A stretch of 64,000 nt of DNA from NCBI GenBank assembly GCA_025928155.1, contig JAICKC010000004.1:1-64000 (forward strand), written 5' to 3'. This document shows, in pieces, positions 36,074 through 61,632 of the stretch (position 1 is the first letter of the stretch; every line of letters starts with the position of its first letter). The notes under the pieces are model-generated. The model did not search any database. It saw only the letters and a program-made list of their open reading frames with translations, and was not told where the DNA came from. A program made the translations under genes and the position numbers. Source of the DNA: Candidatus Saccharimonadota bacterium. GTDB lineage: Bacteria; Patescibacteriota; Saccharimonadia; Saccharimonadales; UBA4665.

Positions 36074-36088
36074 CTGTGGATAACTATT

Positions 36089-36169
36089 TGGCTCCGGGGA
36101 CTGGATTCGAACCAGCGACCTAGTGGTTCGCGTGTTCTTCGGTAGTGTAAACCACCGCAGCGCCCCGGA
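36089..36169 (-). tRNA. tRNA-like gene with encoded CCA; anticodon not resolved
   Basis: The ends are those of a tRNA: acceptor TCCGGGG/CCCCGGA (7 bp), T-arm GCTGG-TTCGAAT-CCAGT, discriminator G and CCA. Total is 81 nt. The middle 46 nt does not fold, in my hands, into a normal D-arm plus a 7-nt anticodon loop; instead it forms GGTGG-TTTACA-CTACC or a GTGGTT/AACCAC stem. It may be an altered tRNA, a phage-remodelled att site, or a tRNA with an insertion. It lies next to the integrase gene. Its 3' end points away from the phage. Confidence 0.55.
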
Positions 36170-36242: not shown

Positions 36243-37187
36243 TTATGTCAACATACTTGTGGCATGACCGGACTCTAATGCTTGCCCGAACTTTGCGTAA
36301 CCGCGCCGTGACTGAATGGCTGATATTTCGTTAGTGTAGACTCGCTGCGTCACAACACTGTCCTTGTGCCCGAGATGGGCAGCCAGGACTGGTAGTGGCA
36401 TGCCCTCTACTGCAAGCAGCGTGGCGTTCGAGTGTCGAAATACATGTTGTGTCACCACTTTGCCGAGCTGCGCCTTGGCAGCGGTCACATGCAGCATATG
36501 GCTAATGGTATGGTAACTGATACGCCGATTCTGTTGGGATATAAAAAGGGGACGATAAACATCGTCCCGGGTCTCTAAATACCTCTGTACTGCCACATAT
36601 GCCCGACTGTGAAAGTGAGTAGCACGATATTTTTGGTTTTTGCCTTGCACCTGTAACTCGTAGATGGGCTCTGCCCTGTGGTGAACGACATCATACTCGT
36701 TCACTATGGTAACAGCTTCCCAGTCCCAGCGGTCGAGACTGGTAAGCTCCGCCGAGCGTATGCCGCTATTGAATAGCAGCTCTATTATCGCTTTAGCGCG
36801 CAGGCTTGGCGCTACACTCACGAGTTTGTCTACTTCCTCGGGGGTAAGTAACGTTTTTGGTTTGTTCTGCTCTTCTCGTTCGTACCGGATTGTTTGATAG
36901 TCCATTACGGGCAACCGCGTAGTTTCCCCTACCCATTTAAGCAACCAGCGTAGGCTGCCTAAACAATCGTTGATATAGCCAGCCTGCAACCCTTGGTCTC
37001 GCATATGCAGTTTCCATGCCAGAATATGTTGGGGGTTTATGGCTTCTATCGGTATGTCACCGGTAACAGTGAGTAACCCGTTTTTGCCGACAATCCGCGT
37101 GCGATACTCACTGTGGGTTTTCTCGCTACGGTTAAGGTCAAGCAAATAGTAAATGTCAAAAGCACGATGCGCTTCAGTAATCGTCAT
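36243..37187 (-). CDS. Tyrosine recombinase / phage integrase
   Basis: A 314-aa integrase. The N-terminal SAM-like core-binding domain (HSEYRTRIVGKNGLLTV, IEAINPQHILAWKLHMRDQ) leads to the catalytic domain: NSGIRSAELTSLDRWDW (Arg I), HVFRHSNATLL (HxxR), HLGHKDSVVTQRVYTNE (His/Tyr nucleophile). All catalytic residues are present. It would integrate and excise the phage at the adjacent tRNA-like gene. Start chosen at ATG 37185-37187; an upstream frame adds 33 unlikely residues. No integron-integrase extra domain is visible. Confidence 0.93.
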   Translation of the reverse strand: MTITEAHRAFDIYYLLDLNRSEKTHSEYRTRIVGKNGLLTVTGDIPIEAINPQHILAWKLHMRDQGLQAGYINDCLGSLRWLLKWVGETTRLPVMDYQTIRYEREEQNKPKTLLTPEEVDKLVSVAPSLRAKAIIELLFNSGIRSAELTSLDRWDWEAVTIVNEYDVVHHRAEPIYELQVQGKNQKYRATHFHSRAYVAVQRYLETRDDVYRPLFISQQNRRISYHTISHMLHVTAAKAQLGKVVTQHVFRHSNATLLAVEGMPLPVLAAHLGHKDSVVTQRVYTNEISAIQSRRGYAKFGQALESGHATSMLT

Positions 37188-37324
37188 TATCGGAAAGTCC
37201 CCTATAACACCTCTTAATTTACAAGTCCCACCATTCCGATGTGGCCTGTCCCCATTTCCCCGCGCGCCGGTAACTCCATAATACAAGCTAAGTCACAGGC
37301 GCAACGTGACATATGACACGGCGT

Positions 37325-40015: not shown

Positions 40016-40622
40016 GCGCGGCGAGTTCTTTCTGCTCGGTGGGGACACGGCCCAAGGCGGCAGTGACAGCAACATGGGCGGCGCACTCTCGTACAGCCAG
40101 CTGGACTTCCCTATTGTGTGGGACTTTCCATTTACTGTTGCGGCAACAGTTACACCGCAGCTGCACCAGCTGCTCGAATGGATATATAGCGTTACGTTAA
40201 TCGCTCCAGTTATTGCGCTTGAGCGCCAAAACGGTGGTGCAAGCGAAATGGAACGCTTGCGTGTAATGAATCGGTGGGGCCACTACCGCCTCTATGTCAG
40301 CCGGAAGTTTGGCACCGAGGACGGCGAGGAAGAAACCGAAAAACTTGGCTGGGACACGAACAATCTCACCCGCCCGAAGCTTATAGGAGATTGGCGTGAC
40401 GCGTTTGATGGTGAGGTTTGCGTGATATACGACGGCCCCACGATTTCGCAGCACAAGACGTTCATCAGCAACAAGCGCGGCCGGCCTGAAGCTGCTGCGG
40501 GCAAGCATGACGACGGCGTTATCTACTCAGCTATTTGCTGGCAAATGTACCAAACCGAACGGCCGCCGGTGGTGCGTGACGATTACGAGCAGCCGTATCA
40601 ACGAACGAATTTTATGGTGTGA
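39990..40622 (+). CDS. Terminase large subunit, nuclease part (frame 2)
   Basis: About 210 aa in the +1 frame. RIYRQPKRGEFFLLGGDTAQ then GGSDSN is the first RNase H-like metal site (GGDTAxG); ALERQNGG and KHDDGVIYSAICW provide later acidic residues. It cuts the concatemer at the end of packaging. The apparent ATG at 39990 lies in the middle of the protein with no ribosome-binding site, so it is probably read by frameshifting from the ATPase part, or the sequence has a one-base error near 39985-39995. Confidence 0.85.
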   Translation: MFRIYRQPKRGEFFLLGGDTAQGGSDSNMGGALSYSQLDFPIVWDFPFTVAATVTPQLHQLLEWIYSVTLIAPVIALERQNGGASEMERLRVMNRWGHYRLYVSRKFGTEDGEEETEKLGWDTNNLTRPKLIGDWRDAFDGEVCVIYDGPTISQHKTFISNKRGRPEAAAGKHDDGVIYSAICWQMYQTERPPVVRDDYEQPYQRTNFMV

Positions 40623-42520: not shown

Positions 42521-44638
42521 GTGGCAACCTATTTAGATGAGAAAGAACTCCTACCCAGCTATACAGCTGCGGTTGAAGAAGCACGTAAGCATACTGACCG
42601 CTTCGACGAATACGACCGGCTTGCCGCAAACGGTATCCGCCCTAACCTTCCCAAGAATTACCCTGAAGTCAACGACGGTACGCTATCATCCATGCTTGAC
42701 GAGAACGTTAAGCGCGTATTCCAGAAGTTGTATAGCGGAAAGTTCTCCGCTTACGACCGCAGCGATGCTTGGTTTGATGAACTCGTAAACGTTCTGTGGA
42801 CGCGCTACATCATCCCGGGCGCAAATACCGATGCCGACTTTTTCACTAAGTTTTGGAACCTGATGTACAGAGCTGAGAAGTACGGTAGTAACCCGTTCTT
42901 CTGCTTTTTCTCTACGCGTGACGATTACACCGGTGGTGACTGGGTGATTGATAACCCACGCGATGTATATCTTGAGCCTGGCAAAGTATCGGCGGATAGC
43001 TCGAACTACCTTTGGCGCAATAGCTACATGACCAAGCTCGATCTGCAAAACCTCATTGAGCAGGCTCAGGCTGAAAATGCCGATGCTGCAAAAACTAAGC
43101 GCGACAGTTTTAACACTTGGGACGTTGAGCTACTACAGCAATATGTAAACGCGGGCCCTGGGGGCAAAGACGACCAAAACAAGAACCGCACCGAGAAGCA
43201 GCGACAGATACAATCGCCGTACTTCACATTTGCTACTGCCTATCACAAAGGCTTCAATGCTCCGTTTCTGACCATCATACCGTCAATGACCGGTCAAGTA
43301 GTGCGTACGCGCGAGAATGAAAACCCGTCAGGCGCTACACCGATTGGTTTCGCCTACCATACCCAAGACCTCGAAAGTCCCTACGGCCGTGGCCTCGTAC
43401 AAAAGGCTGGCCACACACAGAATGTGCTCGATTACTTTAAGGCTGCTGACGTTCTGGCAACGCAGATGGGCGTAGAACCGCCGACAAAAATCAAAGGTTC
43501 CGAGCAGTCACTCACCGGATTCGTGGAAAGCAGCATTATCTATGCCCCTCGCCAGAAGTGGCGCGTAGGCAACGGCGATGCTAATCCGGTTGACCTTAGC
43601 AATGGTGTTTATGACCAGTTGCAAAGCCGCATGAGCAATTACAAAACCGATCTGATGAACCAGCTCGGCATATTTGATACCAGCGTAAGCTCAACCGTTG
43701 GCAATCCGCAGTTCAGTAAAACTCCCGCCGGTGTCGCAAATCTCAATACCCGTACCAACGTCAACGACAATTTCTTTAGCCGTTCAGGCGCTGCCGCATT
43801 TAAGCAACTAGCCGAGCGCCTAATGAACATTCACCTTGCCAACATGGAAGGCACTGAGCCGTACGGCCTGCTCGAAGATGAAGTAGAGCGCCTGCAGAAA
43901 GCTGGATGGGCCGAAGCTAGTAAAAACATCACGCTCGTCTGGAAAAACCTGCGCGGCAAGATGTGCTTCGAAGTTGACGACCCCACTAGCATCAACGACG
44001 AGGAAACCCAGGGGCTCAAAGAAGTCATTACGACCCTGACCGAAAACAACGGCGCGGCAGTCTCGCTTATCGAAGGCGATGGCGATTATAGGGTTGACTT
44101 GGGCGAAGCGTACCGCCAGTACTTCGGCAAATTCCAGCTTCCGAACCTCGATAAGATCATTGTGCCTGTTGACTCTGAGAACTCCGAAGCCGCGAATGGC
44201 GGCCCAGCACCGCAGCCAACACAACCAGGTGCCGCAAATGGTCAAGGCCAAGCTACACCAGCTGGCCGCGCTCCGTCATCCAGCATCAACTACAAAGATG
44301 CCCCGCCTGATATACAGGCTCAAATGGAAGCAGCCGAGGGATGGAGGCCAAGCCCGACACATGCTCCGGCGCTCCAGGCCGCAATGCAACCCCCGCAACC
44401 TCCTGCACCGGCTACACCTGCCCCCACAGCACCGCAAGCACCACAGCATTTGCCTATCACGCCAGAAAACGCCGCACAGCTTAGCCAGGAACACGACGCT
44501 ACCAAACAGCAATACGGTGTCGATGAACACGGTGCGGCAATTATTATGGCCGCCCGCCGCGCCGGCGTGCCGGAAGCAAAGATAGCAGAAGGCATGGCAG
44601 CGGCCCGTGCTAACGCAACGAAAGGAAACCAGCAATGA
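42521..44638 (+). CDS. Portal protein (podovirus type)
   Basis: A 705-aa protein with the size and order expected of a podovirus portal. Recognisable pieces are FFTKFWNLMYRAEKYGSNPF, DDYTGGDWVIDNPRDVYLEP GKVS (portal wing) and SPYGRGLVQKAGHTQNVLDY F (stem/clip region). The C-terminal ~130 residues are Pro/Ala/Gln-rich, probably the barrel/crown extension. Twelve copies would form the vertex through which DNA passes. GTG start at 42521 with GGAAAGG upstream. Family assignment is from pattern and position. Confidence 0.8.
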   Translation: MATYLDEKELLPSYTAAVEEARKHTDRFDEYDRLAANGIRPNLPKNYPEVNDGTLSSMLDENVKRVFQKLYSGKFSAYDRSDAWFDELVNVLWTRYIIPGANTDADFFTKFWNLMYRAEKYGSNPFFCFFSTRDDYTGGDWVIDNPRDVYLEPGKVSADSSNYLWRNSYMTKLDLQNLIEQAQAENADAAKTKRDSFNTWDVELLQQYVNAGPGGKDDQNKNRTEKQRQIQSPYFTFATAYHKGFNAPFLTIIPSMTGQVVRTRENENPSGATPIGFAYHTQDLESPYGRGLVQKAGHTQNVLDYFKAADVLATQMGVEPPTKIKGSEQSLTGFVESSIIYAPRQKWRVGNGDANPVDLSNGVYDQLQSRMSNYKTDLMNQLGIFDTSVSSTVGNPQFSKTPAGVANLNTRTNVNDNFFSRSGAAAFKQLAERLMNIHLANMEGTEPYGLLEDEVERLQKAGWAEASKNITLVWKNLRGKMCFEVDDPTSINDEETQGLKEVITTLTENNGAAVSLIEGDGDYRVDLGEAYRQYFGKFQLPNLDKIIVPVDSENSEAANGGPAPQPTQPGAANGQGQATPAGRAPSSSINYKDAPPDIQAQMEAAEGWRPSPTHAPALQAAMQPPQPPAPATPAPTAPQAPQHLPITPENAAQLSQEHDATKQQYGVDEHGAAIIMAARRAGVPEAKIAEGMAAARANATKGNQQ

Positions 44639-46584: not shown

Positions 46585-47430
46585 ATGGGCGCAGTATATT
46601 ACAGCTCAAAAACCCTTAGCACCATTGACGAGCAGTATGCTCTCAAATCAAAAACCAAAGGCATAATCAACAACGGCTTTACGCTGGACTTCACCGGTAA
46701 CGGTACTGTCCAAATTCAGAACGTCGAAACCGTTGACGAAGTTGACTATGTACCTACTGGCTTTAACCGTTTTGGCTCACTCGTAGAGCTCGGCAACGGT
46801 CTGCAAGAGTTCACCATGTCCCAGGACAAGGCGTGGACGTTCAGCATTGACCGCAAGAGCGCTGACGACACCCAGAACGCGCTCGACGCCAAAAAGGCTG
46901 TTGCACGTCAGGTACGGGTTGTTTCTATCCCGAACACCGACAAGTACATTCTGGCCACTGTCCAGGCTTACGCCGTCACCAACAGCCAGGAAACCACTGG
47001 CAGCGGTACCGCTCTGAGCACCAGCAACGCATACCAGCGCTTCCTGCAACTAGGCGAATACCTGACCGACAACGAAATCGAAAACGAGGACGTGGTTGTG
47101 TACATGCCCCGCACTAAGTTGAACCTGTTGCGCCGCGACAGCGAGTTTAAATTCAACAGCGACAAGGCTTACGAAGATGCCAAGGTCGGCACAGTAGTGC
47201 CTATTGACGGTATGCGCATCGTTGTCGTTCCTACTAGCTACCTGCCGGCTAACACCAACTTCTTGGCTCTATCCGTGAACGTTGTTGCAGCTCCTATGAA
47301 AACCAACATGACCCGTACGCTCACTGACGTCCAGGGTATCGACGGCACCGTTGCTGAAGGCCGCCGCCGCTACGACGCATTTATCGCAAGCAATCGCGGT
47401 AAAGCAATCGTAGTTGACATGAACGCCTAA
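46585..47430 (+). CDS. Major capsid protein
   Basis: 281 aa, directly after the scaffold. Elements of capsid proteins of this class are EFTMSQDKAWTFSIDRKSAD (E-loop/spine region), LGEYLTDNEIENEDVVVYMP RTKL, VGTVVPIDGMRIVVVPTSYL and the late DAFIASNRGKAIVV. The 'SIDRKSADDTQ...' segment is typical of HK97-fold major capsid proteins of podovirus-like phages. It would form the icosahedral shell. No decoration domain is fused. Confidence 0.82.
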   Translation: MGAVYYSSKTLSTIDEQYALKSKTKGIINNGFTLDFTGNGTVQIQNVETVDEVDYVPTGFNRFGSLVELGNGLQEFTMSQDKAWTFSIDRKSADDTQNALDAKKAVARQVRVVSIPNTDKYILATVQAYAVTNSQETTGSGTALSTSNAYQRFLQLGEYLTDNEIENEDVVVYMPRTKLNLLRRDSEFKFNSDKAYEDAKVGTVVPIDGMRIVVVPTSYLPANTNFLALSVNVVAAPMKTNMTRTLTDVQGIDGTVAEGRRRYDAFIASNRGKAIVVDMNA

Positions 47431-49072: not shown

Positions 49073-49453
49073 ATGCGACGATATTTATTCGAGGCCGAAT
49101 ACACTGATGGTTTCGTATACCGAGCCACCCAACGCGATGAAAGCATCTATGAGCCCAAGCGCAATGCTTATTTTGACGTAATGAACAAACTAGCGGCTGA
49201 CCACGGCCGCCTTACTCGTTGGACGCTCCTACCGCAAGGTGGCACTGTGCGTCTCGACATTGATTTTACCCGCTTGCCTGAAAACACGAAGCCAATCTGG
49301 TATATCAAACGGCAGCGTGATCGCACTGTGCAGCGCGTAAATGACACTGACGTAGTTATTTCGGACACTATATTTGAGCTTTGCTATGGCTTTGGGTACG
49401 AATACACTGACGAAGCCGGCAATATCGTCAAAGAGGTACGTGAGGTAACCTAA
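49073..49453 (+). CDS. Hypothetical phage protein, 126 aa
   Basis: A soluble, basic/acidic mixed protein (FVYRATQRDESIYEPKRNAY, IKRQRDRTVQRVNDTDVVIS) with an aromatic-rich end. AAAGGAG upstream. It overlaps the next start by one base. No family recognised; probably virion-related by position. Confidence 0.5.
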   Translation: MRRYLFEAEYTDGFVYRATQRDESIYEPKRNAYFDVMNKLAADHGRLTRWTLLPQGGTVRLDIDFTRLPENTKPIWYIKRQRDRTVQRVNDTDVVISDTIFELCYGFGYEYTDEAGNIVKEVREVT

Positions 49454-51957
49454 TGGCAACGTTTGGCCAGACTGGTAACGGCGGTAGCTCAAGCAGCTCA
49501 AGTGCTGACGCTAATATTGCAAACCGATCTACCGAAGCTAATAGCTCTCCGGCTTCAAACGGTATTCTGGTGTCGGTTCAGGCACGCCTCTGGCTTAGCG
49601 CGGCCGGCTCCACTGTCGCGCAGGCGGCAATTTGGGATAGCTCCGGCAATCTCCTGGCTACTGGTGATGAAATAACCATCACCAACACCACCGAAGCCGA
49701 GTTGACCTTCCCATTCAGCGGCGCAAACGCCATATCACTGACTGCCGGAACCGGTTACACCTATGGTGTCAGCTGGAAAGACCCCGGCACGCCAAGCGTA
49801 ACATGGAGTCGTCAGGCTACCGCATCGACTTCGTTCAAAAATAACGTCGCATATGTCACTGGCTCACCGCAAAACCCGCTTGGAACAGGTACGGTTTCTG
49901 GGCCAATCGACATGTACGTCATCTACAGCACCGGTACGACGCTTACAAAGACGCAAAGTGGTGTGGCAAATATCTTCGTACCGCCACTGGCTAACCAGAC
50001 AGGCAAAGCCCGGCTGCAGAAAACTATCCCAGTCACGCAGCCGGCTATACTGCGAAACGCTACAAACATTGACATTACCCAGGACTTCCAGGGATTAGGC
50101 TATGCGGGTTCACAACGCAAGGTGGCTCATAACTCAACGGGCAGGATATTCGCGGCCTACCGAACGGAAGATTTATCAAACGGCAGCACGTACGAGCCGT
50201 ACGTCGCCTATTCTGATGACGGTGGCAGCACCTGGACAGTTTCAGAAGTAGCCGTTATTACAACTGACCACCAACGTGTGCCAAGCATCTACGTCGATAC
50301 TTCGGACATCATACATATTGCGTGGTACGGCAAAGACCCGTCAAACACTGGCACGAACCAGCGCCAGATTAAATACGCGCACTCAACTAATGGTGGCGCA
50401 ACGTGGAGCTCGTGGGTAAGCGTCGGTGGAGATGTTACCGGCTATACATCATCGTCGCTCTGGCAGGAGCACCCGACAATTATTGCTGACCCATCAAACG
50501 CCAGCAATTTGTACGTCGTATGGGAAGGCCGCGACTCGGTAAATACCAGCTCCCAAATGATTAAGTTCTCCAAGTCAACCGACGGCGGCAGCACGTGGAG
50601 CTCGTGGGTAAACTTGGGCCCGTCAGGGTCGCGGCCGGACATCACTCTAACCTCGAATGGAAATATACACGTTCTCTACTACGACAGTAGTGGCACTACG
50701 GGTAGTGTTCAGCAGCCTTGGCACATGTATAGCACTGACGGCGGCAGCACATGGAGCAGCCCTACTGTTATCGGCGATACCGGCTATGATTCGCGCCACG
50801 TGTCGTTTGTAACAGACGGCACTAATCTATACGCGGTATGGCGCGCGCCAAACGCCACTTACGCAACACCCCAGATTCAATATGCATCGTGGAATGGCAC
50901 CAGCTGGGGAAGTATCTCTACTGTTTCGCCTTCAGCCGGGCTTTACCAGTTCTTCCCGCAGATCGCGCTTATTAGCGGTGTACTGACTGCCGTATGGTTC
51001 GAAACCAGCGACTCGGCAAGCTATCCATCAGAGTCACCTACCACTGGCAATATCCGCATGAGCAAGTATATAAGTGGCGCATGGACTACGGCGACAGTAG
51101 TGACCTCCGGTGGCTTCGACCTGTACGCCAATATTGACCGAACGGCACCGTATATAATCATTGAGACTGGTGCAGCTAGCCCCTACCACATTCAGTTTAT
51201 GAGCTACCAAAGTGCGGCGACTAAGACGGCTACCCAGACCGGAAGCGCGCGCATATCGAAAGGTATAAGTAGCACTCAGTCAGCAATAGGCCGCATACAG
51301 AATACGCTCACGAAAACGCAAGCCGGTAAAGCACGTATCGGGCAGTCGGCTACTAAAACCGTAACGGCTGTTGGCCGCATACTCAACACAGTTACATCAA
51401 CCCAAAGCGCAACCGCTCGCATAATTGCTCTAGTCACAAAAACCCAGGCTGCAAAGGGACGCATATCTAAAACGTTCTCCGCTACTCAAACGGCAATTAC
51501 CCGTATAGGCGTTGGTACCACAAATACGCAGCAAGGTAAGGCCAGAATAGCGAAGGTGCTTACCAAAACCCAGGCAGGAACTGCCCGTATAAGCGCCAGC
51601 CAATCTAGAGTCCAGACGTCGGTAGCTCGACTTGCTAAGGCACTCAACACCACTCAGGCCGGTAAGGGCCACATTGTGGTGCTCGTCACCAAAACCCAGC
51701 AAGCCAAAGGACGTATAGCAATCCTCGTATCGCGTGCGCAAAATGCTGTCGCCCGCATAGGCGATACCCTGACATATACCCAAGCAGGCAAAGGCCGAAT
51801 TAAGGGCCACCCAAGTTATGTACCACTTCCGTCAGTCGTCGGCTCACCTGAAAAGCCGGTAGCCGTTAGCAGTCCAGTCTCTGCGGTAACTGTAGCGAGT
51901 GGCGGGAATGGCACTGCGGTAAACGGCTCCGGTACTGCGGTAAATGTAGAAGAATAA
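49453..51957 (+). CDS. Large fibre/adhesin: BNR beta-propeller plus 14-residue repeats, 834 aa
   Basis: N-terminal ~170 residues are a beta-sandwich (AAIWDSSGNLLATGDEITIT). Residues ~200-590 contain four Asp boxes, SDDGGSTW (~253), STNGGATW (~311), STDGGSTW (~375) and STDGGSTW (~428), which mark a sialidase/BNR-type six-bladed propeller. Residues ~591-786 are about thirteen tandem 14-residue units like TKTQAGKARISKVL. The propeller may bind or cleave surface glycans. No sialidase Arg triad is obvious, so binding rather than hydrolysis is inferred. Likely the receptor-binding tailspike or capsid fibre. Confidence 0.75.
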   Translation: MATFGQTGNGGSSSSSSADANIANRSTEANSSPASNGILVSVQARLWLSAAGSTVAQAAIWDSSGNLLATGDEITITNTTEAELTFPFSGANAISLTAGTGYTYGVSWKDPGTPSVTWSRQATASTSFKNNVAYVTGSPQNPLGTGTVSGPIDMYVIYSTGTTLTKTQSGVANIFVPPLANQTGKARLQKTIPVTQPAILRNATNIDITQDFQGLGYAGSQRKVAHNSTGRIFAAYRTEDLSNGSTYEPYVAYSDDGGSTWTVSEVAVITTDHQRVPSIYVDTSDIIHIAWYGKDPSNTGTNQRQIKYAHSTNGGATWSSWVSVGGDVTGYTSSSLWQEHPTIIADPSNASNLYVVWEGRDSVNTSSQMIKFSKSTDGGSTWSSWVNLGPSGSRPDITLTSNGNIHVLYYDSSGTTGSVQQPWHMYSTDGGSTWSSPTVIGDTGYDSRHVSFVTDGTNLYAVWRAPNATYATPQIQYASWNGTSWGSISTVSPSAGLYQFFPQIALISGVLTAVWFETSDSASYPSESPTTGNIRMSKYISGAWTTATVVTSGGFDLYANIDRTAPYIIIETGAASPYHIQFMSYQSAATKTATQTGSARISKGISSTQSAIGRIQNTLTKTQAGKARIGQSATKTVTAVGRILNTVTSTQSATARIIALVTKTQAAKGRISKTFSATQTAITRIGVGTTNTQQGKARIAKVLTKTQAGTARISASQSRVQTSVARLAKALNTTQAGKGHIVVLVTKTQQAKGRIAILVSRAQNAVARIGDTLTYTQAGKGRIKGHPSYVPLPSVVGSPEKPVAVSSPVSAVTVASGGNGTAVNGSGTAVNVEE
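51227..51810 (+). repeat. Tandem 42-bp coding repeats (14-residue units)
   Basis: About thirteen units with consensus T-x-T-Q-x-x-x-(A/G)-R-I-x-x-x-(L/V). The nucleotide sequence has drifted but the period is constant. It may form a triple beta-helix or coiled fibre shaft. Confidence 0.75.
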
Positions 51958-52529: not shown

Positions 52530-53555
52530 ATGGCTAACTCGGTTCAATATGCAGGCCCATACTCACCAGCCGCCTATAGCGCGGCAAGAAGCTTAGCCAA
52601 CGGAGGCAGCGGCGCGCCGAATAGCGCTCCAGTTGTTGCAGCCGCCAAGGCGATTATCTCTAAACAGCCAGCCGCTGCTCCAGTAGCGCCCGTACGCTCT
52701 GCATCTTCGTACGGTTCCGGCTCGTCCAGCACTACCGACCCTGTTGCTGCTGCGTACTACGGCGACCAGGTGAACGCGCTAAAAGGCGTGCTCGGCACAT
52801 TGCCAACCTTACAAGACCAAGGTGTTAATAACATCAGGAATAACGCTAACAAGAGCCTGAATGACCTTAATACCCAGGAAAGCCAAACCGAAAGTAACAT
52901 TGCAGAGTCACGTAATACCGCCAACAAGAACAAGGCGACTAGCTTAAACAACATTGACCAGAACGTCGCCGATACAGTAGACAGTTTTAAGCGGCTTACC
53001 GGCGCAGCGCACGCCGGCGATAGTGCATTTGCACAGGAATTTGTACCGCTCGCCACTGCTCGCCAAGGCTCCACGCAGCGTCAGGGAGTGTTTAACACAT
53101 TTGGCCAGGACATGGGGCAACTCGATACTGCCGAGAATAACGCCAAAACCGCCTACGGCTCCCAAAAAGAGGACATTAACAACAAACTGAACAGCGATTT
53201 GCTGACGTTCCTACAAAACATTGGCCAGCAAAAGGACACGATCAACAACGAAGTCAAGCAGGCACAGTACGCGCAAATCGAAGCCCAAGGTGGTACACCG
53301 GGGCAATTCTCTGCCGCAGCCGCGCCATATAGCACGAACCCGAGTGATGCTACTGCTGCACTGCAAGCGCTATTTAGCCAATATGCGAACCCGACCTACG
53401 CCGTAAACCCGGTAACGGTCAGCTTGCCAAACGTAAGCTCGTACGCGGTTGACCCGCTTGTTGCGCAGTTGAGCGCCGCAAACCCGGATACCCAAACAGC
53501 ATTACTGCCATTCTTACCACAGATAAAGAAACAAACCGCAGGAACAACAGCATAA
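52530..53555 (+). CDS. Putative internal virion (ejection) protein, 341 aa
   Basis: Ala/Ser/Gln-rich ends and a long coiled middle (NNIRNNANKSLNDLNTQESQ, TESNIAESRNTANKNKATSL). A beta-rich Val/Tyr tail (YAVNPVTVSLPNVSSYAVDP) ends it. It stands immediately upstream of the 1686-aa internal protein, the usual neighbourhood of podovirus ejection proteins. Assignment is by position and composition. Confidence 0.55.
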   Translation: MANSVQYAGPYSPAAYSAARSLANGGSGAPNSAPVVAAAKAIISKQPAAAPVAPVRSASSYGSGSSSTTDPVAAAYYGDQVNALKGVLGTLPTLQDQGVNNIRNNANKSLNDLNTQESQTESNIAESRNTANKNKATSLNNIDQNVADTVDSFKRLTGAAHAGDSAFAQEFVPLATARQGSTQRQGVFNTFGQDMGQLDTAENNAKTAYGSQKEDINNKLNSDLLTFLQNIGQQKDTINNEVKQAQYAQIEAQGGTPGQFSAAAAPYSTNPSDATAALQALFSQYANPTYAVNPVTVSLPNVSSYAVDPLVAQLSAANPDTQTALLPFLPQIKKQTAGTTA

Positions 53556-53565
53556 GGAGTCGCGC

Positions 53566-56500
53566 GTGAGTTTTCTCGATGACCTGCGCAAAAAGTTACA
53601 TGGTGCCGTAGCTCAAGCTAACCCTTTTGATAGTGGCCAGACATACAGCACGGTCACTAATAACCGCGTACCGACACCAGCACCGGCTCCTGCCGCCCTA
53701 TCTAAGCCCGTACCGACACCTGCACCCGGCCACGCGAGCTTCTTACATGACGTTCTGCACAATCCGGTTACGCACGCTTTTGGTACGGCTGGCAGCGACA
53801 TAGTAAAACTGGCAGACAGCAGTTATAACCCTACTACTGTAGTCAACAAAGCAGTAGTGACACCGCTGGTCAACCAAGCTGCCGCTGGCGTACGTTCCGT
53901 ATACGACATTGGGCGTGGTGCGGCTGCGAGCCTTACGAATAACCCGGTAGCACTTGCTAATGCTCACAAGGCCAAGGCAACTGATGAACCGCAATTCCTG
54001 GCGCCAGTGACAAGGCCGGTAGCACAGGCAGCAGAAACGGTGCTGCACCCATTCTCGACTCACACAGTCACGCCTACAACCGAAAGCGATAAAAGGATTT
54101 TTGGCTCAGCTCCGATACAGAACGTACAAGCTGGCGTTGCAAGTAACTATGCTGAGCATCCTAACTTGCCTACCCCGGCCCGCGCCGCACTAGCGGGCGC
54201 ATACGGTTTAGGACAGGCCGCGCAGGACATCCTGACACTACTAGGCGGTAAAAAGGTAGCAGCCGATACTGTTGACGCCGCGAAACCGGCCATACGCTCT
54301 GCCGCTGGCACGGCACGTGAAGTAGCGGCAAATCCGGTGCCGCTCGGTGAGACTGGCGCGGTCAAGCTGCCCGGCGGTTCTGCGACGCCCGAGCCAATAG
54401 ACCAAAAGCAGTTTGCCGCTGACTACTTGAAGAACAACCCTGAGCAGGCGCTCAAAGACTACCAAGCCCGCACGATGCAGGAGTTTGGTACCTCTGTACC
54501 GAATGTAGTAAGTGCTGACGAAAGCAAGTTTATTATCCCGAACTTCGGCCCTGATAAGTCTGCCGCCTACCATGAAGCGGCAAGTGCGTATGCAAAGGAC
54601 TACTACAAAAAACTACTGGCCGACGAGAGTACGAAAGACAAGCCCGTGCTTATTACGGCGGGCGGCGCGGGAGCCGGCAAGTCCAGCGGGCTACAACTAG
54701 CTTCGAAAGAAACGCCCGGCGGCCTCGACAGGTACGCTGCTATCAACGATACGAACTTAGCCAATATGGCCTCGGCTGATTCGCGTATCCAGCCAGCGCT
54801 TGACAGCGGGCGTAAGGTGCGCATTTTGTACACGTACCGTGACCCCACGGAAGCTTTTGTAAACGGTAATATACCACGTGCCGCCAGAACCGGCCGTGTT
54901 GTACCCATCGAGCCTCACGCGGATACGCATATTGGGTCGCTACAGACAATCCAGCAATTAGCAGAAAAGTACAAAGACAATCCGAATGTTAGTATAAAGA
55001 TAGTTGATAACAGCAGGGGTAAAGGTAATGAGACATTTGCTCCAGTTGACTTTTTGAAGAATAAGCAGTACAATAAAGATGAACTAATAGCTACGTTACG
55101 GAAGGAGTTAGACAATGCAAAAAACCGCAATCAAGTCAGCCAAGAAGCCTACCAAACGTATCTCGGCCTGGACTCAGGCACTCCTCGACTGGGGCAAGTA
55201 GGTTCCGGTGGGACTCAAGAAGGTGCGGCTAACGCCCAAGCAAAAGGCGTTCAAGAAACTCTCGGACAAGACGGCAAAAGCCTTCGCCAAAGGTCTGAGC
55301 AACCTCGGTTAGCAACTCCTAACGATACAAAAGCTGCCACTGCAGCTGAATTAGGTATACCTAAGGGCATCCCCTACGCCGTTAATAAAGACGGTGTACC
55401 AGTGCTCGATATGAGCGGTGGTAAGACTATTGCTCAGCATGCTCAGGAGATTCTTCGAACTATTGGATCGCCGGCAGCACAGCGTATGTCTGACGAGGAG
55501 CTAGCGAGCTTGGTATCTACTGCGCCTGCCGATTCAGCCGGTTCTCCTGCTCGCGCTCTATCGCAATCCCCTGGCGAAACTGGCTCTGGCCGTACAGCCA
55601 CACCAAACCGCACAGAAGTATCACAAAACACAGCGCCTCAATCAGAAACCATAGGTGGTGCGCAGCATAGTTCCACTCTGTCCCCACAAACGCGCACGCA
55701 AACAGAGATATCAGCGCCCACATCACAATCTTTAGAGTTGCGACAAACGGCTGCGAAACCGGACGCTGTTCAACCTCATTCATCTGCTGCCAGCATAGCA
55801 GAAACATTGGGCGTTTCGCAAGGCAAAACTACAGCCCTTGACCGTTACGCGGCCGAAGCAAGGGGCATCGCAAGCATGACGCCACTCTCGGAGCAGATAA
55901 AAGCTCGTGCAATGCAGGTTAGCCGACTTGGTGAAATGACGCCAGTCGAGAAGTCGCTATATCAGCAGGCCAAAGCGCAAGAGACTGAAATGGCCCGCAA
56001 GGTAAAAGCTGCAGGCAATAGTGCGTTTGGCGGTGATATCCCGACTGGCGTTGATGCGGCACAGTATGATGTTGACCCTACCAATATCAGCAAAAAAGTA
56101 AACATACTCGACTTTTTCCGTACACCGGAGCGTGTACTACGCAAAATTGGCCTCGCGCCAGATGCTGACGCAATACGTGCCGCTGACATGGCCTACAAGG
56201 AAGAACTGCCGCAGCAGATTAACCGCATCAGCCAATGGTATGACGAGGTTGGCCGTAGTAACGCCGCATCACAGCGTATATTCAAGTACCTAGATGGCCA
56301 ACGCGGGGCAAAAAAGGCGCTGCAAGGCAACGAACTGCGTGTAGCTAATGAGATGAAACAGTATTTGAGCGACTGGGCTGATCGACTAAAACTGCCTGAA
56401 GAAAACCGCATCAGCAACTACATCACGCATATATTTGAAAGTGGCTTTATTGAAAAGGAGTTTGACCCTGACCTCGCGAAATTGATTGATGACCGTGTGC

Positions 56501-58626
56501 CAGGCAGTGTGTATGACCCGTTCACACAACACCGGCTTGGCAAGCGTGGCTACAAAGAGGACGCGTTTGCTGCTCTGGACGCATACGCCAAGCGTGCCAC
56601 TCGCAAAGTGAACTTTGACCCTGCCCTGGAACGGCTAAGCGAAAACGCACAGTTACTCGACGTTGACAGCCTAAAGTACGTGAAACAATACGCTGACCGT
56701 ATCAACATGCGTCCAACCTTTGTGGACAACCTGATTGATAACGCCATAAAGCAAACTCCCATTGGGTACAAGCTCGGCCAACGGCCGCTTACTCGCGCCA
56801 GTGGCATGCTGCGCCAAGCTACCTACCGTGCCAGCCTAGGCCTGAACTTCGGGAGCGCTGTGCGCAACCTGACGCAAGGCATTAACACGTATGCAGAGCT
56901 AGGCAATCACTACACCAGCATTGGCTACATAAAAGCCATACAGGCTATTGCGCAGCATAGCGACGAGCTGAAGCGTGCCGGCGTGCTTGATAACTCATTT
57001 ATTGAGGACAGGTCAATGAGTGCCACCAAGAAAGCGATGCAACGTTTCGACGATGGCCTGATGACATTCTTTACGGCAGCGGAGCATATTAACAGGGGTG
57101 CCGCATACTTCGGTGCGAAAGCCAAAGCACTGGCTGAGGGCAAGTCACTTGAGGAGGCAGAGCAGTATGGTACTGATATGGCCCGCAAGACACAGTTCGC
57201 ATTTGGTCGTATAGATACGCCGGTGTGGTTGAACAATGACCTCGCAAAAACACTCGGTCAGTTCCAAAACTACAGTGTCAAACAAGGAGAGTTCCTGTTT
57301 GACATGGCGAAAAACAAAGAGTTCCGCAAGATGCTGCGGTTTACAGGCGCGAGCATTGTTGTGTACGCCACTATTGGTCGCGCACTGGGCTACAAGCCAA
57401 CTGACATGCTCCCGTCCGTACAAATCGGTGGCACAAAACCGTTTAAGACGCCTGGCGACATTGGCAGCGCAATCGTTAAATCGTTCACCGCCAAAGACAC
57501 CACTAGTTCAACACGCGGTACGCAGATACGCAAAGCATGGCAAAAAGTAGGCGGTGATGTAGGCTATTCTACCGTGCCCGGCTTCGCCCAAGGTAAAAAG
57601 ACGGTTGAGGGCATTAAAGCCGTCCTGAATGGCAAGTACCAGCCGTATGGTGGCTCGGCTGAAACAATCGCGCCGACGCCCATGAATTTCGCCAAAGGCG
57701 CTTTATTCGGGCCCACTGTGCTCCAAGGGCCAAAAGCCAATACGTCTACATCAGGAGCTAGCGCATCGGTTACTGGCGGAAATGCTGGCGTCGCAGCTGC
57801 CGAAGCCAGCAACCCACTGCAGGATAAGGCAGCATTGGCCGAAGCATTCGGTAAAGATTTCGCTGCCCTCAAGAGTGACACTGATCGCAAAGCATGGGCG
57901 CAGCAAAGCCCACAGAATAACGCTATCTACCAAGAATACCTGAGCGCCAAGAAAGGTCTCAGTAACCCTAACCTCCCCTACGGCCTCGATACCCAAAGCG
58001 CTGACTTCCTCCATAACTACAACCGGCTCACTCCCGGCGCCCAGCAAAAGAAGCTATACGGCCAGAACGACTATGAATACAGGCTCAACCAGGCCCAATA
58101 TGCCGAAGCCAAGGCAAAGGGCAATATGTCTACCACTGATGAGATCAACTGGCAGGGCAAACTGGACAGGGCCCAGGTGGGTGCAGATTACAACAAAGAC
58201 ACCCGCGACCTCTACGGCCTGTCTAAGACTAAACTATACGACTTCCTGCAAAGTGCCCCTGATAGCGCTGCAAAAACTCAGATGATGGATGACCTCATCA
58301 GCTACGATAAAGCGCTCCACGATAACGGCATAACCACTAGCCTCAAATTCAAGTACGGTTTTGACCCGAACGCTGCAAGTGGTGCGCGCAAGAGCTCAAG
58401 CAAGCTAAAGGCCGATCTCAAAGCACTATCCAGCCCAACTGCCGGCGTAAGTGACGTTGCGAAACTCGGCAAGCTGATTGGCACCACGATGAAAACGCCG
58501 AACTCACACGGCCGCATTGCTGCCGGCAAGCCGCACCTCAAGAGTATGGTTGTCGCAAGAAAATCGGGCGGCTACGGAAATAGCGCCAGAACTACGGCAG
58601 CACTAAAGAGGCTGCTCACAGCCTAG
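53566..58626 (+). CDS. Giant internal/polyvalent protein with zeta-toxin-like kinase domain, 1686 aa
   Basis: The largest phage protein. Residues ~340-545 form a zeta-toxin/P-loop kinase domain: VLITAGGAGAGKSSGLQLAS (Walker A ~363-371), DRYAAINDTNLANM, ILYTYRDPTEAFVNG and a final DNSRGKGNETFAPV. Residues ~640-750 are a low-complexity Ser/Thr/Gln linker. Residues ~820-1300 form a helical domain with YRASLGLNFGSAVRNLTQGI, characteristic of large polyvalent proteins. A C-terminal helical domain (DYEYRLNQAQYAEAKAKGNM) follows. As an ejected internal protein it may enter the host with DNA. Whether the kinase domain acts on UDP-GlcNAc is unknown. Confidence 0.78.
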   Translation: MSFLDDLRKKLHGAVAQANPFDSGQTYSTVTNNRVPTPAPAPAALSKPVPTPAPGHASFLHDVLHNPVTHAFGTAGSDIVKLADSSYNPTTVVNKAVVTPLVNQAAAGVRSVYDIGRGAAASLTNNPVALANAHKAKATDEPQFLAPVTRPVAQAAETVLHPFSTHTVTPTTESDKRIFGSAPIQNVQAGVASNYAEHPNLPTPARAALAGAYGLGQAAQDILTLLGGKKVAADTVDAAKPAIRSAAGTAREVAANPVPLGETGAVKLPGGSATPEPIDQKQFAADYLKNNPEQALKDYQARTMQEFGTSVPNVVSADESKFIIPNFGPDKSAAYHEAASAYAKDYYKKLLADESTKDKPVLITAGGAGAGKSSGLQLASKETPGGLDRYAAINDTNLANMASADSRIQPALDSGRKVRILYTYRDPTEAFVNGNIPRAARTGRVVPIEPHADTHIGSLQTIQQLAEKYKDNPNVSIKIVDNSRGKGNETFAPVDFLKNKQYNKDELIATLRKELDNAKNRNQVSQEAYQTYLGLDSGTPRLGQVGSGGTQEGAANAQAKGVQETLGQDGKSLRQRSEQPRLATPNDTKAATAAELGIPKGIPYAVNKDGVPVLDMSGGKTIAQHAQEILRTIGSPAAQRMSDEELASLVSTAPADSAGSPARALSQSPGETGSGRTATPNRTEVSQNTAPQSETIGGAQHSSTLSPQTRTQTEISAPTSQSLELRQTAAKPDAVQPHSSAASIAETLGVSQGKTTALDRYAAEARGIASMTPLSEQIKARAMQVSRLGEMTPVEKSLYQQAKAQETEMARKVKAAGNSAFGGDIPTGVDAAQYDVDPTNISKKVNILDFFRTPERVLRKIGLAPDADAIRAADMAYKEELPQQINRISQWYDEVGRSNAASQRIFKYLDGQRGAKKALQGNELRVANEMKQYLSDWADRLKLPEENRISNYITHIFESGFIEKEFDPDLAKLIDDRVPGSVYDPFTQHRLGKRGYKEDAFAALDAYAKRATRKVNFDPALERLSENAQLLDVDSLKYVKQYADRINMRPTFVDNLIDNAIKQTPIGYKLGQRPLTRASGMLRQATYRASLGLNFGSAVRNLTQGINTYAELGNHYTSIGYIKAIQAIAQHSDELKRAGVLDNSFIEDRSMSATKKAMQRFDDGLMTFFTAAEHINRGAAYFGAKAKALAEGKSLEEAEQYGTDMARKTQFAFGRIDTPVWLNNDLAKTLGQFQNYSVKQGEFLFDMAKNKEFRKMLRFTGASIVVYATIGRALGYKPTDMLPSVQIGGTKPFKTPGDIGSAIVKSFTAKDTTSSTRGTQIRKAWQKVGGDVGYSTVPGFAQGKKTVEGIKAVLNGKYQPYGGSAETIAPTPMNFAKGALFGPTVLQGPKANTSTSGASASVTGGNAGVAAAEASNPLQDKAALAEAFGKDFAALKSDTDRKAWAQQSPQNNAIYQEYLSAKKGLSNPNLPYGLDTQSADFLHNYNRLTPGAQQKKLYGQNDYEYRLNQAQYAEAKAKGNMSTTDEINWQGKLDRAQVGADYNKDTRDLYGLSKTKLYDFLQSAPDSAAKTQMMDDLISYDKALHDNGITTSLKFKYGFDPNAASGARKSSSKLKADLKALSSPTAGVSDVAKLGKLIGTTMKTPNSHGRIAAGKPHLKSMVVARKSGGYGNSARTTAALKRLLTA
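55517..55807 (-). CDS. Possible antisense membrane protein inside the polyvalent gene, 96 aa
   Basis: On the opposite strand over the low-complexity linker, a 96-aa frame reads like a real protein: two hydrophobic helices (TLKIVMWALISLFACAFVG and WFLIEALCFVILLCGLVWLY) and a charged helical tail (QFRQGIAIEREQENRLN), with the topology of a holin or spanin. No ribosome-binding site is visible and it is antisense to the transcript, so it may be only a shadow of the linker's composition. Confidence 0.25.
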   Translation of the reverse strand: MFLLCWQQMNEVEQRPVSQPFVATLKIVMWALISLFACAFVGTEWNYAAHHLWFLIEALCFVILLCGLVWLYGQSQFRQGIAIEREQENRLNRQAQ

Positions 58627-58639
58627 AAAGGAAACAGAA

Positions 58640-59338
58640 ATGGCTACGCAAAAAACTCTCCAGCAAGTAGTAAATAAAATGCACCGTTGGTACGCCGGTG
58701 ATGCAAAATACCCGACGCCCGGGAGCGCCGACTGGAACATGTACGTCGAAATAGTGAACGACCTCAAAGACACGATGGCACAATCCGGCCCGAGCCTTAA
58801 ATTACGATCATGCTGGGAGGAACGTACCTTTGGTACTGCTAGTGCCGCCAATACCCAGTATGAGCTCGATGATGACGTAACGGGCCTTTCGGACTTCGTA
58901 TACCTTGACCAGACTGATGGCAACAAGCTGGAGTACGGGGTAATTAAGGCTGAGCAGCGTGGCACAATCGGCCGGCACCAGCGAGAGGTATGGAGCAGCG
59001 GCACGATACCGTTGCAACTCAACTTTAGCTATATACCATCCAGCGCAGCTAACGCGACCATCCGGGCAGGCGTTTTCTTCGTGCCTGAGGACGTAAGCAG
59101 CGCTGATGAAGTTGTGCCAGTTGATAACCCGGCGTATATCATTTTCGCCGGCGCAGCCGAGCTCGCCTTTAACGACCCGAGCAAGGAGGACAAATTCCCC
59201 GATCTGAACGGCATGGCAAACGACGAATGGCAGAAGATGGTCGATGCCGCAGTAACTCTGCCTGACGGCCAAGCTAATACCGTACCGATTGCCGGATTCT
59301 ATAACCCTGGCCACATGGACTACGAGGAGCGTGGCTAA
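58640..59338 (+). CDS. Tail adaptor (gp4/gp11-like head-tail connector) protein
   Basis: 232 aa. The N-terminus QQVVNKMHRWYAGDAKYPTP then NMYVEIVNDLKDTMAQSGP is a helical base; a long beta-rich body follows (VYLDQTDGNKLEYGVIKAEQ) and a helical end. Size, layout and position directly before the nozzle protein match P22 gp4 / T7 gp11-type adaptors. GAAAGGAAAC precedes the ATG. Its stop overlaps the next start (TAATG). Confidence 0.65.
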   Translation: MATQKTLQQVVNKMHRWYAGDAKYPTPGSADWNMYVEIVNDLKDTMAQSGPSLKLRSCWEERTFGTASAANTQYELDDDVTGLSDFVYLDQTDGNKLEYGVIKAEQRGTIGRHQREVWSSGTIPLQLNFSYIPSSAANATIRAGVFFVPEDVSSADEVVPVDNPAYIIFAGAAELAFNDPSKEDKFPDLNGMANDEWQKMVDAAVTLPDGQANTVPIAGFYNPGHMDYEERG

Positions 59339-61632
59339 TGTACACCGCTACCCGCCGCGCCGGCAAGAAGCCGCCCATCCAAAAGGAGCGTGTGGGCTGG
59401 CCTAACGGCTATATGTCTACCGCACAGGACGGCACGATACCGGAAACTGCCCTGGCGGACATGACGAACTACGACCTATCGACTAATAGCTTACCGTTTA
59501 TTCGCCAGTCACTCGTACCTTACGGCGCAGATTTTCTTGGCACCTGCATCGGTGTTGGTACGTTCCGCAAAACTATCACCGGCGGAGTGCAAGAGAACTG
59601 GGAAGTATCCACCCAAGTCACAGCGGTAAATGCCGTACAAACGTTATCTATCACGGGCAGTCCGACTGGCGGCACCTTTACCCTGACGTTCGGCGGCCAC
59701 ACTACCAGCACGATAAACTGGAACGCCAGCGCTTCAGCTGTGCAAACCGCCCTGCAGGCGCTTTCGTCCATTGGTACCGGCAACGTAACCTGTACTGGCG
59801 GCGCGCTGCCTACTACGGCCGTAGTGATAACCTTTACCGGCACACTTGCTGACACGAATGTTAGCACTATCACCATCGGCACCAACAGTCTTACGGGCGG
59901 TACGTCACCCGCTCCGCATATTGCAGCCACTACGACCGGCGGCCCAACCGGAAAGTTGTACACTCGCAAAGACGGTGATACCTGGACGCTCATCAGTGGC
60001 AGCTACGGCTACGATAACGCTGCGTGGTCATCGTATTGCCAGGCACATGGCCGCGCGTACATCATCAACGGCGTAAATAACCTAAGCTACTACGACATCG
60101 TCAGTGGTGCCGTGGTGACGTATACGCAGATTAGTAAACCAGCGGCACCTACCGTAACCCAAACCGGCCTGACTGGCAGCACGTATACCTTGTATTACGT
60201 GATAACGGCCACTACTGAAGCCGGCGAGACTGACGGCTCAGTAGAAGGAACGGTAACTGTAAGCGCCCTTCGGGACGCATGGGATGGCAGCACACAGTAT
60301 GTAGACCTGTCGTTTACGCTACCGTCCGGCTCGAATGGTGGCAAGGTGTACGTGGGCACTGCCGCCGGCCAAGAGCAGCTGATAGCTACCGTAAACGCGG
60401 GCGCAACCTCCTACCGTGACTATGGCAAAGCGGCTAGCGTGACACTGCGGCCGCCTATCAGCAACTCGACCGGCGGCCCGATACTCGTATACCTGACAAA
60501 CATCACTGGCCAGCTATTCGGCATAGATGTTGACGGAAAAGTCTGGTATGACGGCGGTAGCGCCGGCACCAGCGGTAACTTTACTATTGCCGGCGGTGGC
60601 GGCTGGGTTGCGATTGACGATAGTGGCCCGACTATCCCTATGGCAGTAGTGGGCTATCCGACAGGTAAGGGCGACCCGGTACCGACCGTAGTGTGTAACG
60701 CCGCTGGCGCATTGGGTGCAGTGCGGCAAATCACGTTTACCCCTCAGCAAATCGGCGACCTGAGTGCGCTAATGCCAAATGTATCTGACGCTAACGGTAG
60801 CGTGGGAACGGTAGCACCCTTTGCAACCGTCGTAGCCGACAACTCTATTCACTTCCCGACCGGCAACGGTTTTGGCTACGAAGGCCACGCCGCGAACATC
60901 CCTAACATCCTGACGCCAAACAGTACGAGTGACTTTATCCAGAAAGACTGCGACCAGCTACTATTGGCCGGTGCACGTGGCTGGCGGGCGCTCGTATACC
61001 AAAACCGTGTCTACTTCGCGGTATCGCGGCAGAGCAACACAAACAACGAAGTATGGATACTCGACCTACGTACGAACCCAGCCCGCTGGATTATGCCCTG
61101 GACGATTGCCGCACAGCACATGTGGCTCTATGAAGATAACGATCACGTAATTCACTTCTGCATGCTCGTGGACGGCACGGAAATGGAGCTTAGCGACAAG
61201 CAGTTTACTACTGACGGCAATACATCTTTCAGTACTCACGTGGCTAGTGGCCCGGTTAAGTGGGATTCGGCCGGTTTGAGTGTGGGGTATGTACAAAACC
61301 AGCGCTTCAGGCTTAACAACGTGCGTGGTGATGCCATTGTGGCTGTAAATGGTACTACCGAGATGCCAAACCGTACAACCATTGAGATAGACCAGGGCGC
61401 GCCAGGGACATTTAGCGGCTGGGGCGATGCAGTGTGGGGGGTGGACGATTGGGGCAGTGAGCCTTCCACGCCGGCTACCATTTTGCCGGGTACACTCGTG
61501 GCAACGGTACCCATGAAAACAAAGCTAAACGGGTTTTCCTGGGAGATAACCACCACTACAAGCGGCTGCGCCCTGGGCTTAGGTGGCGTTGACACTGAGG
61601 GTGTAATGATACCCAGGCTGTATGCGGGATAA
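59338..61632 (+). CDS. Tail nozzle/stabilisation protein (gp10/gp12-like) with inserted Ig-like domains
   Basis: 764 aa. The N-terminus PNGYMSTAQDGTIPETALAD MTNYDLSTN...FIRQSLVPYG is the usual start of tail-tube/nozzle proteins of podoviruses. Between residues ~100 and 200 a beta-sandwich rich in Thr/Gly is inserted (TLTFGGHTTSTINWNASASA), and a fibronectin-like part follows (YTLYYVITATTEAGETDGSV). The C-terminal half is a beta-propeller-like region (WILDLRTNPARWIMPWTIAA). It forms the distal tail nozzle. Confidence 0.7.
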   Translation: MYTATRRAGKKPPIQKERVGWPNGYMSTAQDGTIPETALADMTNYDLSTNSLPFIRQSLVPYGADFLGTCIGVGTFRKTITGGVQENWEVSTQVTAVNAVQTLSITGSPTGGTFTLTFGGHTTSTINWNASASAVQTALQALSSIGTGNVTCTGGALPTTAVVITFTGTLADTNVSTITIGTNSLTGGTSPAPHIAATTTGGPTGKLYTRKDGDTWTLISGSYGYDNAAWSSYCQAHGRAYIINGVNNLSYYDIVSGAVVTYTQISKPAAPTVTQTGLTGSTYTLYYVITATTEAGETDGSVEGTVTVSALRDAWDGSTQYVDLSFTLPSGSNGGKVYVGTAAGQEQLIATVNAGATSYRDYGKAASVTLRPPISNSTGGPILVYLTNITGQLFGIDVDGKVWYDGGSAGTSGNFTIAGGGGWVAIDDSGPTIPMAVVGYPTGKGDPVPTVVCNAAGALGAVRQITFTPQQIGDLSALMPNVSDANGSVGTVAPFATVVADNSIHFPTGNGFGYEGHAANIPNILTPNSTSDFIQKDCDQLLLAGARGWRALVYQNRVYFAVSRQSNTNNEVWILDLRTNPARWIMPWTIAAQHMWLYEDNDHVIHFCMLVDGTEMELSDKQFTTDGNTSFSTHVASGPVKWDSAGLSVGYVQNQRFRLNNVRGDAIVAVNGTTEMPNRTTIEIDQGAPGTFSGWGDAVWGVDDWGSEPSTPATILPGTLVATVPMKTKLNGFSWEITTTTSGCALGLGGVDTEGVMIPRLYAG

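What the first reader, a model, noticed from the sequence alone, without database searches (positions are those of the whole stretch)
53566..58626. Internal virion polyvalent protein carrying a zeta-toxin-like kinase
A 1686-aa late protein has a P-loop kinase domain (GGAGAGKSS) with zeta-toxin-like surroundings, plus a helical domain typical of polyvalent proteins. Zeta toxins phosphorylate UDP-GlcNAc and block wall synthesis. Delivered with the phage DNA, such a domain could poison wall synthesis, competing phages, or act on a host or episymbiont partner.
Basis: partly seen in the sequence, partly recalled or inferred. Interest (0 to 1): 0.7.

Follow-up and report, generated by a model that had tools for sequence, protein, structure and literature searches.

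The report
Phage virion protein carrying block-swapped zeta kinase
A virus dormant in the genome of a tiny parasitic-type bacterium makes a giant particle protein that carries a rearranged zeta-toxin kinase, probably injected with the viral DNA to phosphorylate sugar-nucleotides used for cell-wall building; it is a new variant of a known phage strategy and not a new system.

Summary
The 1686-aa ORF is real, has a ribosome-binding site, and sits among structural genes of a 38-kb prophage inserted in tRNA-Asn of a ~1.3-Mb genome, inferred to be Patescibacteria. Residues ~275-545 are a zeta-type kinase, but not the classical PezT/zeta kind. The substrate-Asp block (D318) lies before the P-loop (K372); in classical zeta toxins it lies after. 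This swapped order is that of gonococcal ng_zeta1, a "topologically rewired" zeta toxin that phosphorylates UDP-sugars at C4'. The family profile hits ng_zeta1 collinearly (E 3.8e-15). The AlphaFold model (pLDDT 87) fits 6EPH with TM 0.75 but classical zeta with only ~0.46. D318, K372, R438 and R444 are all kept. The C-terminal ~550 aa are a divergent relative of the tail-700/PLxRFG module of giant phage proteins. Homologues of that module carry an ADP-ribosyltransferase, a zincin-like HExxH motif, or no recognised cargo, so the kinase is exchangeable cargo. Most likely it is packaged, ejected with the DNA, and drains UDP-sugar wall precursors. Packaging, activity and substrate are inferred. 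Zeta-like kinases in phage polyvalent proteins were reported in 2017; in the literature searched I did not find the rewired subclass described as virion cargo.

The parts
53554..53559 (+). Shine-Dalgarno AAGGAG, 6 nt before the GTG start
   Evidence: sequence
53566..58626 (+). 1686-aa polyvalent-type virion protein (whole ORF)
53566..54387 (+). residues 1-274: Ala/Pro/Val/Thr-rich N-terminal region, no recognised domain
54388..55200 (+). residues ~275-545: block-swapped (ng_zeta1-type) zeta kinase domain
54517..54519 (+). D318: catalytic/substrate Asp (aligns with ng_zeta1 D56, functional counterpart of streptococcal zeta D67), placed BEFORE the P-loop
54526..54528 (+). K321: position of ng_zeta1 K59 (Arg in the 17 other non-duplicate rows)
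54661..54687 (+). Walker A GGAGAGKSS, residues 366-374; K372 aligns with ng_zeta1 K115
54748..54750 (+). D395 of the INDTN strand (aligned with Glu of ng_zeta1 FEGQL)
54877..54897 (+). R438 and R444: aligned with ng_zeta1 R175 and R181, same spacing of 6
55201..55785 (+). residues 546-740: Ala/Ser/Thr/Gly/Gln-rich flexible linker between kinase and scaffold
56080..57735 (+). residues ~839-1390: all-helical scaffold, divergent tail-700/PLxRFG module, shared with 7 homologues
57736..58623 (+). residues 1391-1686: Lys/Ala-rich C-terminal tail (net positive)
36088..36128 (.). attL: 41-bp repeat; other copy at contig position 74229-74269, at the 3' end of tRNA-Asn
36243..37286 (-). tyrosine integrase of the prophage
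42521..44638 (+). connector/portal-like protein (phrog_332)
46585..47430 (+). major head protein (phrog_422, E 3.6e-39)
59338..61632 (+). tail protein (phrog tail families, E 8e-11); homologue also lies downstream of the scaffold gene in L039 and L040

Best explanation
The gene encodes an internal or tail-associated virion protein of a temperate phage of a Patescibacteria host. The helical C-terminal module anchors it in the particle. The kinase (residues 275-545) hangs on a flexible linker and is ejected with the DNA into the recipient. There D318 deprotonates a hydroxyl of a UDP-sugar (most likely the C4'-OH of UDP-MurNAc, UDP-GlcNAc or UDP-glucose). ATP bound at the K372 P-loop donates the phosphate, and R438/R444 stabilise it. 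The dead-end UDP-sugar phosphate starves MurA/MurC, and wall synthesis slows during early infection. Shown by computation: the fold, the block order, the conserved active site, the scaffold homology, the cargo exchange and the late-gene position. Inferred: packaging, ejection, catalysis, substrate and benefit.
For: Profile of 18 homologues matches ng_zeta1 end to end, E 3.8e-15. AF2 pLDDT 87.3, pTM 0.83; best PDB matches are all ng_zeta1 (E 2.8e-12, TM 0.75, rmsd 3.0), classical zeta/PezT/AvrRxo1 next with TM 0.42-0.49. A classical zeta (L010) matches the family HMM in swapped order: P-loop block at residues 40-60, Asp block at 67-111. P0001 keeps 27 of 30 columns invariant in 17 homologues but only 90 of 180 columns overall, the pattern of a working active site. 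Gonococcal ng_zeta1 biochemistry and swapped blocks: PMC5923241. Scaffold: 6 of 7 rows match tail-700. A homologue (L013) has no kinase, L039 has ART-PolyVal (E 0.0025), L044 an HEFGH motif. Late-gene context. Host genome has a MurA-like protein over the full model length and Mur ligases.
Against: No virion proteomics, no induction data, no assay. The ng_zeta1 residues that hold the lactyl group of UDP-MurNAc are only partly kept (K59 to K321, N75 to S332), and the family has its own invariant YRDP, H455 and DN motifs, so the substrate may differ. P0001 is on a long branch (1.87). MurA and MurC matches are below NCBI's equivalog cut-offs. The scaffold model is low confidence (pLDDT 49).
Confidence: 0.55

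Rival explanations
1. The block-swapped kinase acts on another nucleotide-linked substrate, for example NAD/ADP-ribose derivatives or a defence signal, so that the injected domain is an anti-defence or nucleotide-signalling effector and not a wall poison.
For: The zeta-fold effector AvrRxo1 phosphorylates NAD at the 3' position (PMC5491322, PMC5087710) and is among the next-best structural matches. The phage family has an invariant YRDP motif not seen in ng_zeta1 and lacks the Asn of UDP-MurNAc recognition. A sibling scaffold carries an ADP-ribosyltransferase-like domain, an NAD-using type of effector.
Against: Closest by far is a UDP-sugar kinase, with both phosphate-binding arginines at the same spacing.
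Confidence: 0.2
2. The kinase is used in the producing cell or lysogen rather than the recipient: it helps lysis from within, or excludes superinfecting phages by inducing stasis.
For: It lies in a late gene cluster, so it is probably made just before lysis; no epsilon-type antitoxin was recognised among the neighbours scanned.
Against: Fusion to a virion scaffold module and swap with other effector domains at that place suit delivery better.
Confidence: 0.12
3. The domain is a catalytically dead relic or purely structural.
For: Long branch, low Pfam score; one homologue does without it.
Against: 27 of 30 family-invariant columns retained, including all four active-site residues aligned with ng_zeta1, no stops in a 1686-codon frame.
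Confidence: 0.08

Closest known systems
ng_zeta1 toxin of the gonococcal epsilon_1/zeta_1 TA system (PDB 6EPG/6EPH/6EPI; PMC5923241)
   Same: block-swapped zeta topology, D56/K115/R175/R181 equivalents, collinear over the whole kinase domain
   Different: there a stand-alone plasmid-borne toxin with an antitoxin and a C-terminal OB domain; here a domain in a 1686-aa phage protein, no antitoxin recognised, N75 replaced by Ser, extra YRDP motif
Zeta-toxin-like kinases in polyvalent proteins and MuF fusions (Iyer et al. 2017, PMC5512222)
   Same: a zeta-type kinase in a multidomain mobile-element protein, predicted to weaken the recipient's wall
   Different: the passage read does not mention the block swap or the ng_zeta1 relation (that structure is from 2018); here a prophage in an inferred Patescibacteria genome with a tail-700-like scaffold
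Classical zeta/PezT toxins (PF06414; PDB 1GVN, 3Q8X, 2P5T)
   Same: P-loop kinase fold, Asp/Lys/Arg site
   Different: Asp block follows the P-loop there; structural match much weaker (TM ~0.45)
tail-700 / PLxRFG C-terminal module (NCBIfam NF032893)
   Same: helical C-terminal module of large phage proteins
   Different: score far below the curated cut-off; a divergent branch
Caudoviricetes sp. ctPCi537, UOF78922 (MW202577), annotated thymidylate kinase
   Same: same kinase family (32% identity) at the end of an 878-aa protein in the structural cluster
   Different: no recognisable scaffold homology; kinase at the extreme C-terminus

Membership tests
Classical zeta/PezT (PF06414) | Walker A P-loop with catalytic Lys | tested here: met
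   K372 in GGAGAGKSS
Classical zeta/PezT (PF06414) | block order P-loop, then substrate-Asp block, then core strand | tested here: not met
   Asp block (D318) precedes the P-loop; classical L010 shows the opposite order with the same HMM
Classical zeta/PezT (PF06414) | C3'-OH phosphorylation of UDP-GlcNAc | not testable with these tools
   needs enzyme assay and NMR
Rewired ng_zeta1 subclass | swapped sequence blocks, collinear with ng_zeta1 | tested here: met
   single collinear profile match over ng_zeta1 40-266, E 3.8e-15; Foldseek TM 0.75
Rewired ng_zeta1 subclass | D56, K115, R175, R181 | tested here: met
   D318, K372, R438, R444
Rewired ng_zeta1 subclass | K59 and N75 that bind the UDP-MurNAc carboxyethyl group | tested here: inconclusive
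   K321 kept, N75 is S332
Rewired ng_zeta1 subclass | C4'-OH kinase activity | not testable with these tools
   needs assay
Rewired ng_zeta1 subclass | partner epsilon antitoxin gene | tested here: inconclusive
   flanking genes 52530-53555 and 58640-59338 match no antitoxin in the libraries used, but ng_epsilon1 binds as an extended peptide and a divergent one could be missed
Polyvalent proteins | multidomain protein of a mobile element, encoded among virion genes | tested here: met
   prophage with att repeats and integrase; head and tail genes around it
Polyvalent proteins | exchangeable enzymatic domains on a shared scaffold | tested here: met
   kinase here; ART-PolyVal in L039 (weak, E 0.0025), HEFGH in L044, no recognised domain in L013
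Polyvalent proteins | delivery into the recipient with DNA | not testable with these tools
   needs virion proteomics and injection assay
tail-700/PLxRFG | score over curated cut-off (100 bits) | tested here: not met
   37.5 bits, E 1e-9; 6 of 7 rows match, best E 4.6e-14

The most novel reading that the evidence does not exclude
The YRDP-bearing block-swapped kinases of phages are a distinct family of injected nucleotide kinases that disable a defence signal or a nucleotide cofactor, not the wall, and are traded between virion scaffolds like warheads.
Probability: 0.15. Interest if true: 0.8.

Novelty: new variant of a known kind. Interest (0 to 1): 0.5.

Why it matters
It puts a solved enzyme (ng_zeta1) beside a set of unexplained large phage proteins, so the activity of a candidate injected effector becomes testable with known substrates and point mutants. 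It also gives a glimpse of virion-borne effectors in phages of Patescibacteria, for which very little is known experimentally, and suggests that rewired zeta kinases are widespread on mobile elements beyond the proteobacterial toxin-antitoxin loci in which they were described.

Tried and rejected
Reading the missing half of the Pfam match as a deleted substrate-binding segment (a dead or re-purposed short kinase): rejected when the 21-row alignment showed the segment upstream of the P-loop. phmmer of the full protein against PDB found nothing relevant; the family profile did. Single-sequence viral scan with the full protein found nothing. AF2 of the scaffold gave pLDDT 49, so no fold search was made with it. 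hhalign of the scaffold against the LPD38-bearing C-terminus of L020 gave no support (probability 4%). Apparent tree support for architecture groups is not used, as P0001 is on a long branch with weak placement. A kinship with thymidylate kinase (the annotation in MW202577) was rejected: Pfam and fold say zeta.

Full report
What is there. The ORF 53566-58626 (+) encodes 1686 aa from a GTG preceded at 6 nt by AAGGAG. It lies in a prophage: an exact 41-bp repeat is found at 36088-36128 and at contig position 74229-74269, the second copy at the 3' end of tRNA-Asn(gtt), and a tyrosine integrase lies next to the left copy. The prophage is therefore about 38.2 kb and runs past the right edge of the window. 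A connector (phrog_332), a major head protein (phrog_422, E 3.6e-39) and a tail protein flank the ORF on the same strand. The genome is 1.3 Mb, 98% complete, in a phylum of mostly 0.6-1.5-Mb genomes; I infer Patescibacteria from this and did not confirm the class.

The kinase. Pfam sees only the second half of Zeta_toxin (profile 95-187). A related phage protein (MW202577, 32% identity) gave a two-row alignment that found 19 viral loci. The alignment of 21 rows shows a conserved block GGRVLNTDxARELSPxY..DRTxSAxVHEPASxxxK before the P-loop strand. In classical zeta kinases this substrate-Asp block follows the P-loop. The family HMM shows the swap directly: the classical protein L010 matches HMM 69-89 (P-loop) at residues 40-60 and HMM 19-61 (Asp block) at 67-111, whereas the family has them in the opposite order; L009, from a related genome, matches in the family order in one stretch. 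Each of the two L010 block matches is weak alone (i-E 0.03 and 0.27); the order is confirmed independently by the PDB match below, and Pfam hits of N-terminal fragments agree with it.

Relation to a solved enzyme. The family profile matches the gonococcal ng_zeta1 toxin collinearly over residues 40-266, E 3.8e-15, and no other zeta structure. The authors of that structure describe two sequence blocks that swapped position ('topological rewiring'), D56 as catalytic base, K115 in the P-loop, R175 and R181 as phosphate patch, K59 and N75 as contacts to the lactyl group of UDP-MurNAc, and phosphorylation at C4'-OH of UDP-MurNAc, UDP-GlcNAc and UDP-glucose (PMC5923241). In the window protein these are D318, K372, R438, R444 (same spacing of six), K321 and S332. 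An AlphaFold2 model of residues 305-545 (pLDDT 87.3, pTM 0.83) matches ng_zeta1 with TM 0.75 at rmsd 3.0, and classical zeta, PezT and AvrRxo1 with TM 0.42-0.49.

Is it likely active? Of 30 columns invariant in 17 non-duplicate homologues P0001 keeps 27; over all 180 ungapped columns it agrees with the majority in 90. One of the three changes is Arg to Lys at the K59 position, the residue ng_zeta1 has. This is the pattern of a diverged but functional enzyme.

The scaffold and cargo exchange. Residues 839-1390 are 38-58% identical to proteins in six viral contigs and 45% to one in another genome of the phylum. Six of the seven aligned scaffolds match NCBIfam tail-700/PLxRFG (best E 4.6e-14), the window protein at E 1e-9, below the curated cut-off. 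In front of this module the homologues differ: L013 has no kinase or other recognised domain, L039 an ART-PolyVal match at residues 328-428 (E 0.0025), L044 an HEFGH zincin-like motif with a weak metallopeptidase match. The same kinase family also sits in other proteins: stand-alone (258-361 aa), in proteins of 724-1193 aa, and in giants up to 3301 aa, some of them together with glucosaminidase, InPase, LPD38, LPD22 or ART domains. One is in another Patescibacteria contig (L050) with a different scaffold. The kinase is thus cargo moved among scaffolds.

Rarity. Of 380 genomes of the phylum only the window's own gave a strong match to the kinase family profile; the best others were E 1.8e-10 and weaker. 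Among 50,697 phage records one matched, among 72,556 plasmids one weakly. Most members come from uncultivated viruses.

Mechanism. From the paper: ng_zeta1 drains UDP-MurNAc and UDP-GlcNAc and lyses E. coli when expressed, dependent on K115. The host genome here has a MurA-like protein over the full model length (277 bits) and several Mur-ligase matches, all below NCBI's equivalog cut-offs, so UDP-GlcNAc-based wall synthesis is likely. I infer that the protein is packaged through its scaffold and ejected, and that the kinase reduces wall synthesis early in infection, easing DNA entry or later lysis. Iyer et al. proposed this role for zeta-like kinases of polyvalent proteins. Substrate identity is the weakest step, because of the S332 change and of the family's invariant YRDP, H455 and DN motifs.

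Novelty. The general idea is published (2017) and the enzyme subclass is published (2018) as a toxin-antitoxin component. In the literature searched I found no description of the block-swapped subclass as phage virion cargo; the library lacks most subscription journals. I therefore rate it a new variant of a known kind.

Noticed in passing
39008-40015 and 39990-40622 (+): The putative large terminase appears split into an ATPase half and a nuclease half in overlapping ORFs, the second in the +1 frame; a homologous break with the same offset is in L042 (3469-4269, 4172-4912). Programmed frameshift or conserved split terminase; the terminase reading rests on position and motifs.
   Followed up: partly
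36088-36128 and contig C23 74229-74269: Prophage attachment repeats at tRNA-Asn next to an smpB-like gene; the prophage extends 10 kb beyond the window.
   Followed up: yes
L041:10015-10424: A scaffold homologue ends in a weak HNH endonuclease match, another possible cargo at the opposite end.
   Followed up: no
L011:17907-20543: The public annotation 'thymidylate kinase' of UOF78922 (MW202577) is misleading: the domain is a block-swapped zeta-type kinase.
   Followed up: yes
L009:1447-2130 (-): A stand-alone block-swapped zeta protein next to a conjugation-type ATPase ORF, in an order-level relative.
   Followed up: no
49453-51957 (+): 834-aa late protein with a weak BNR/sialidase-like beta-propeller signal, possibly a tail nozzle or fibre.
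   Followed up: no
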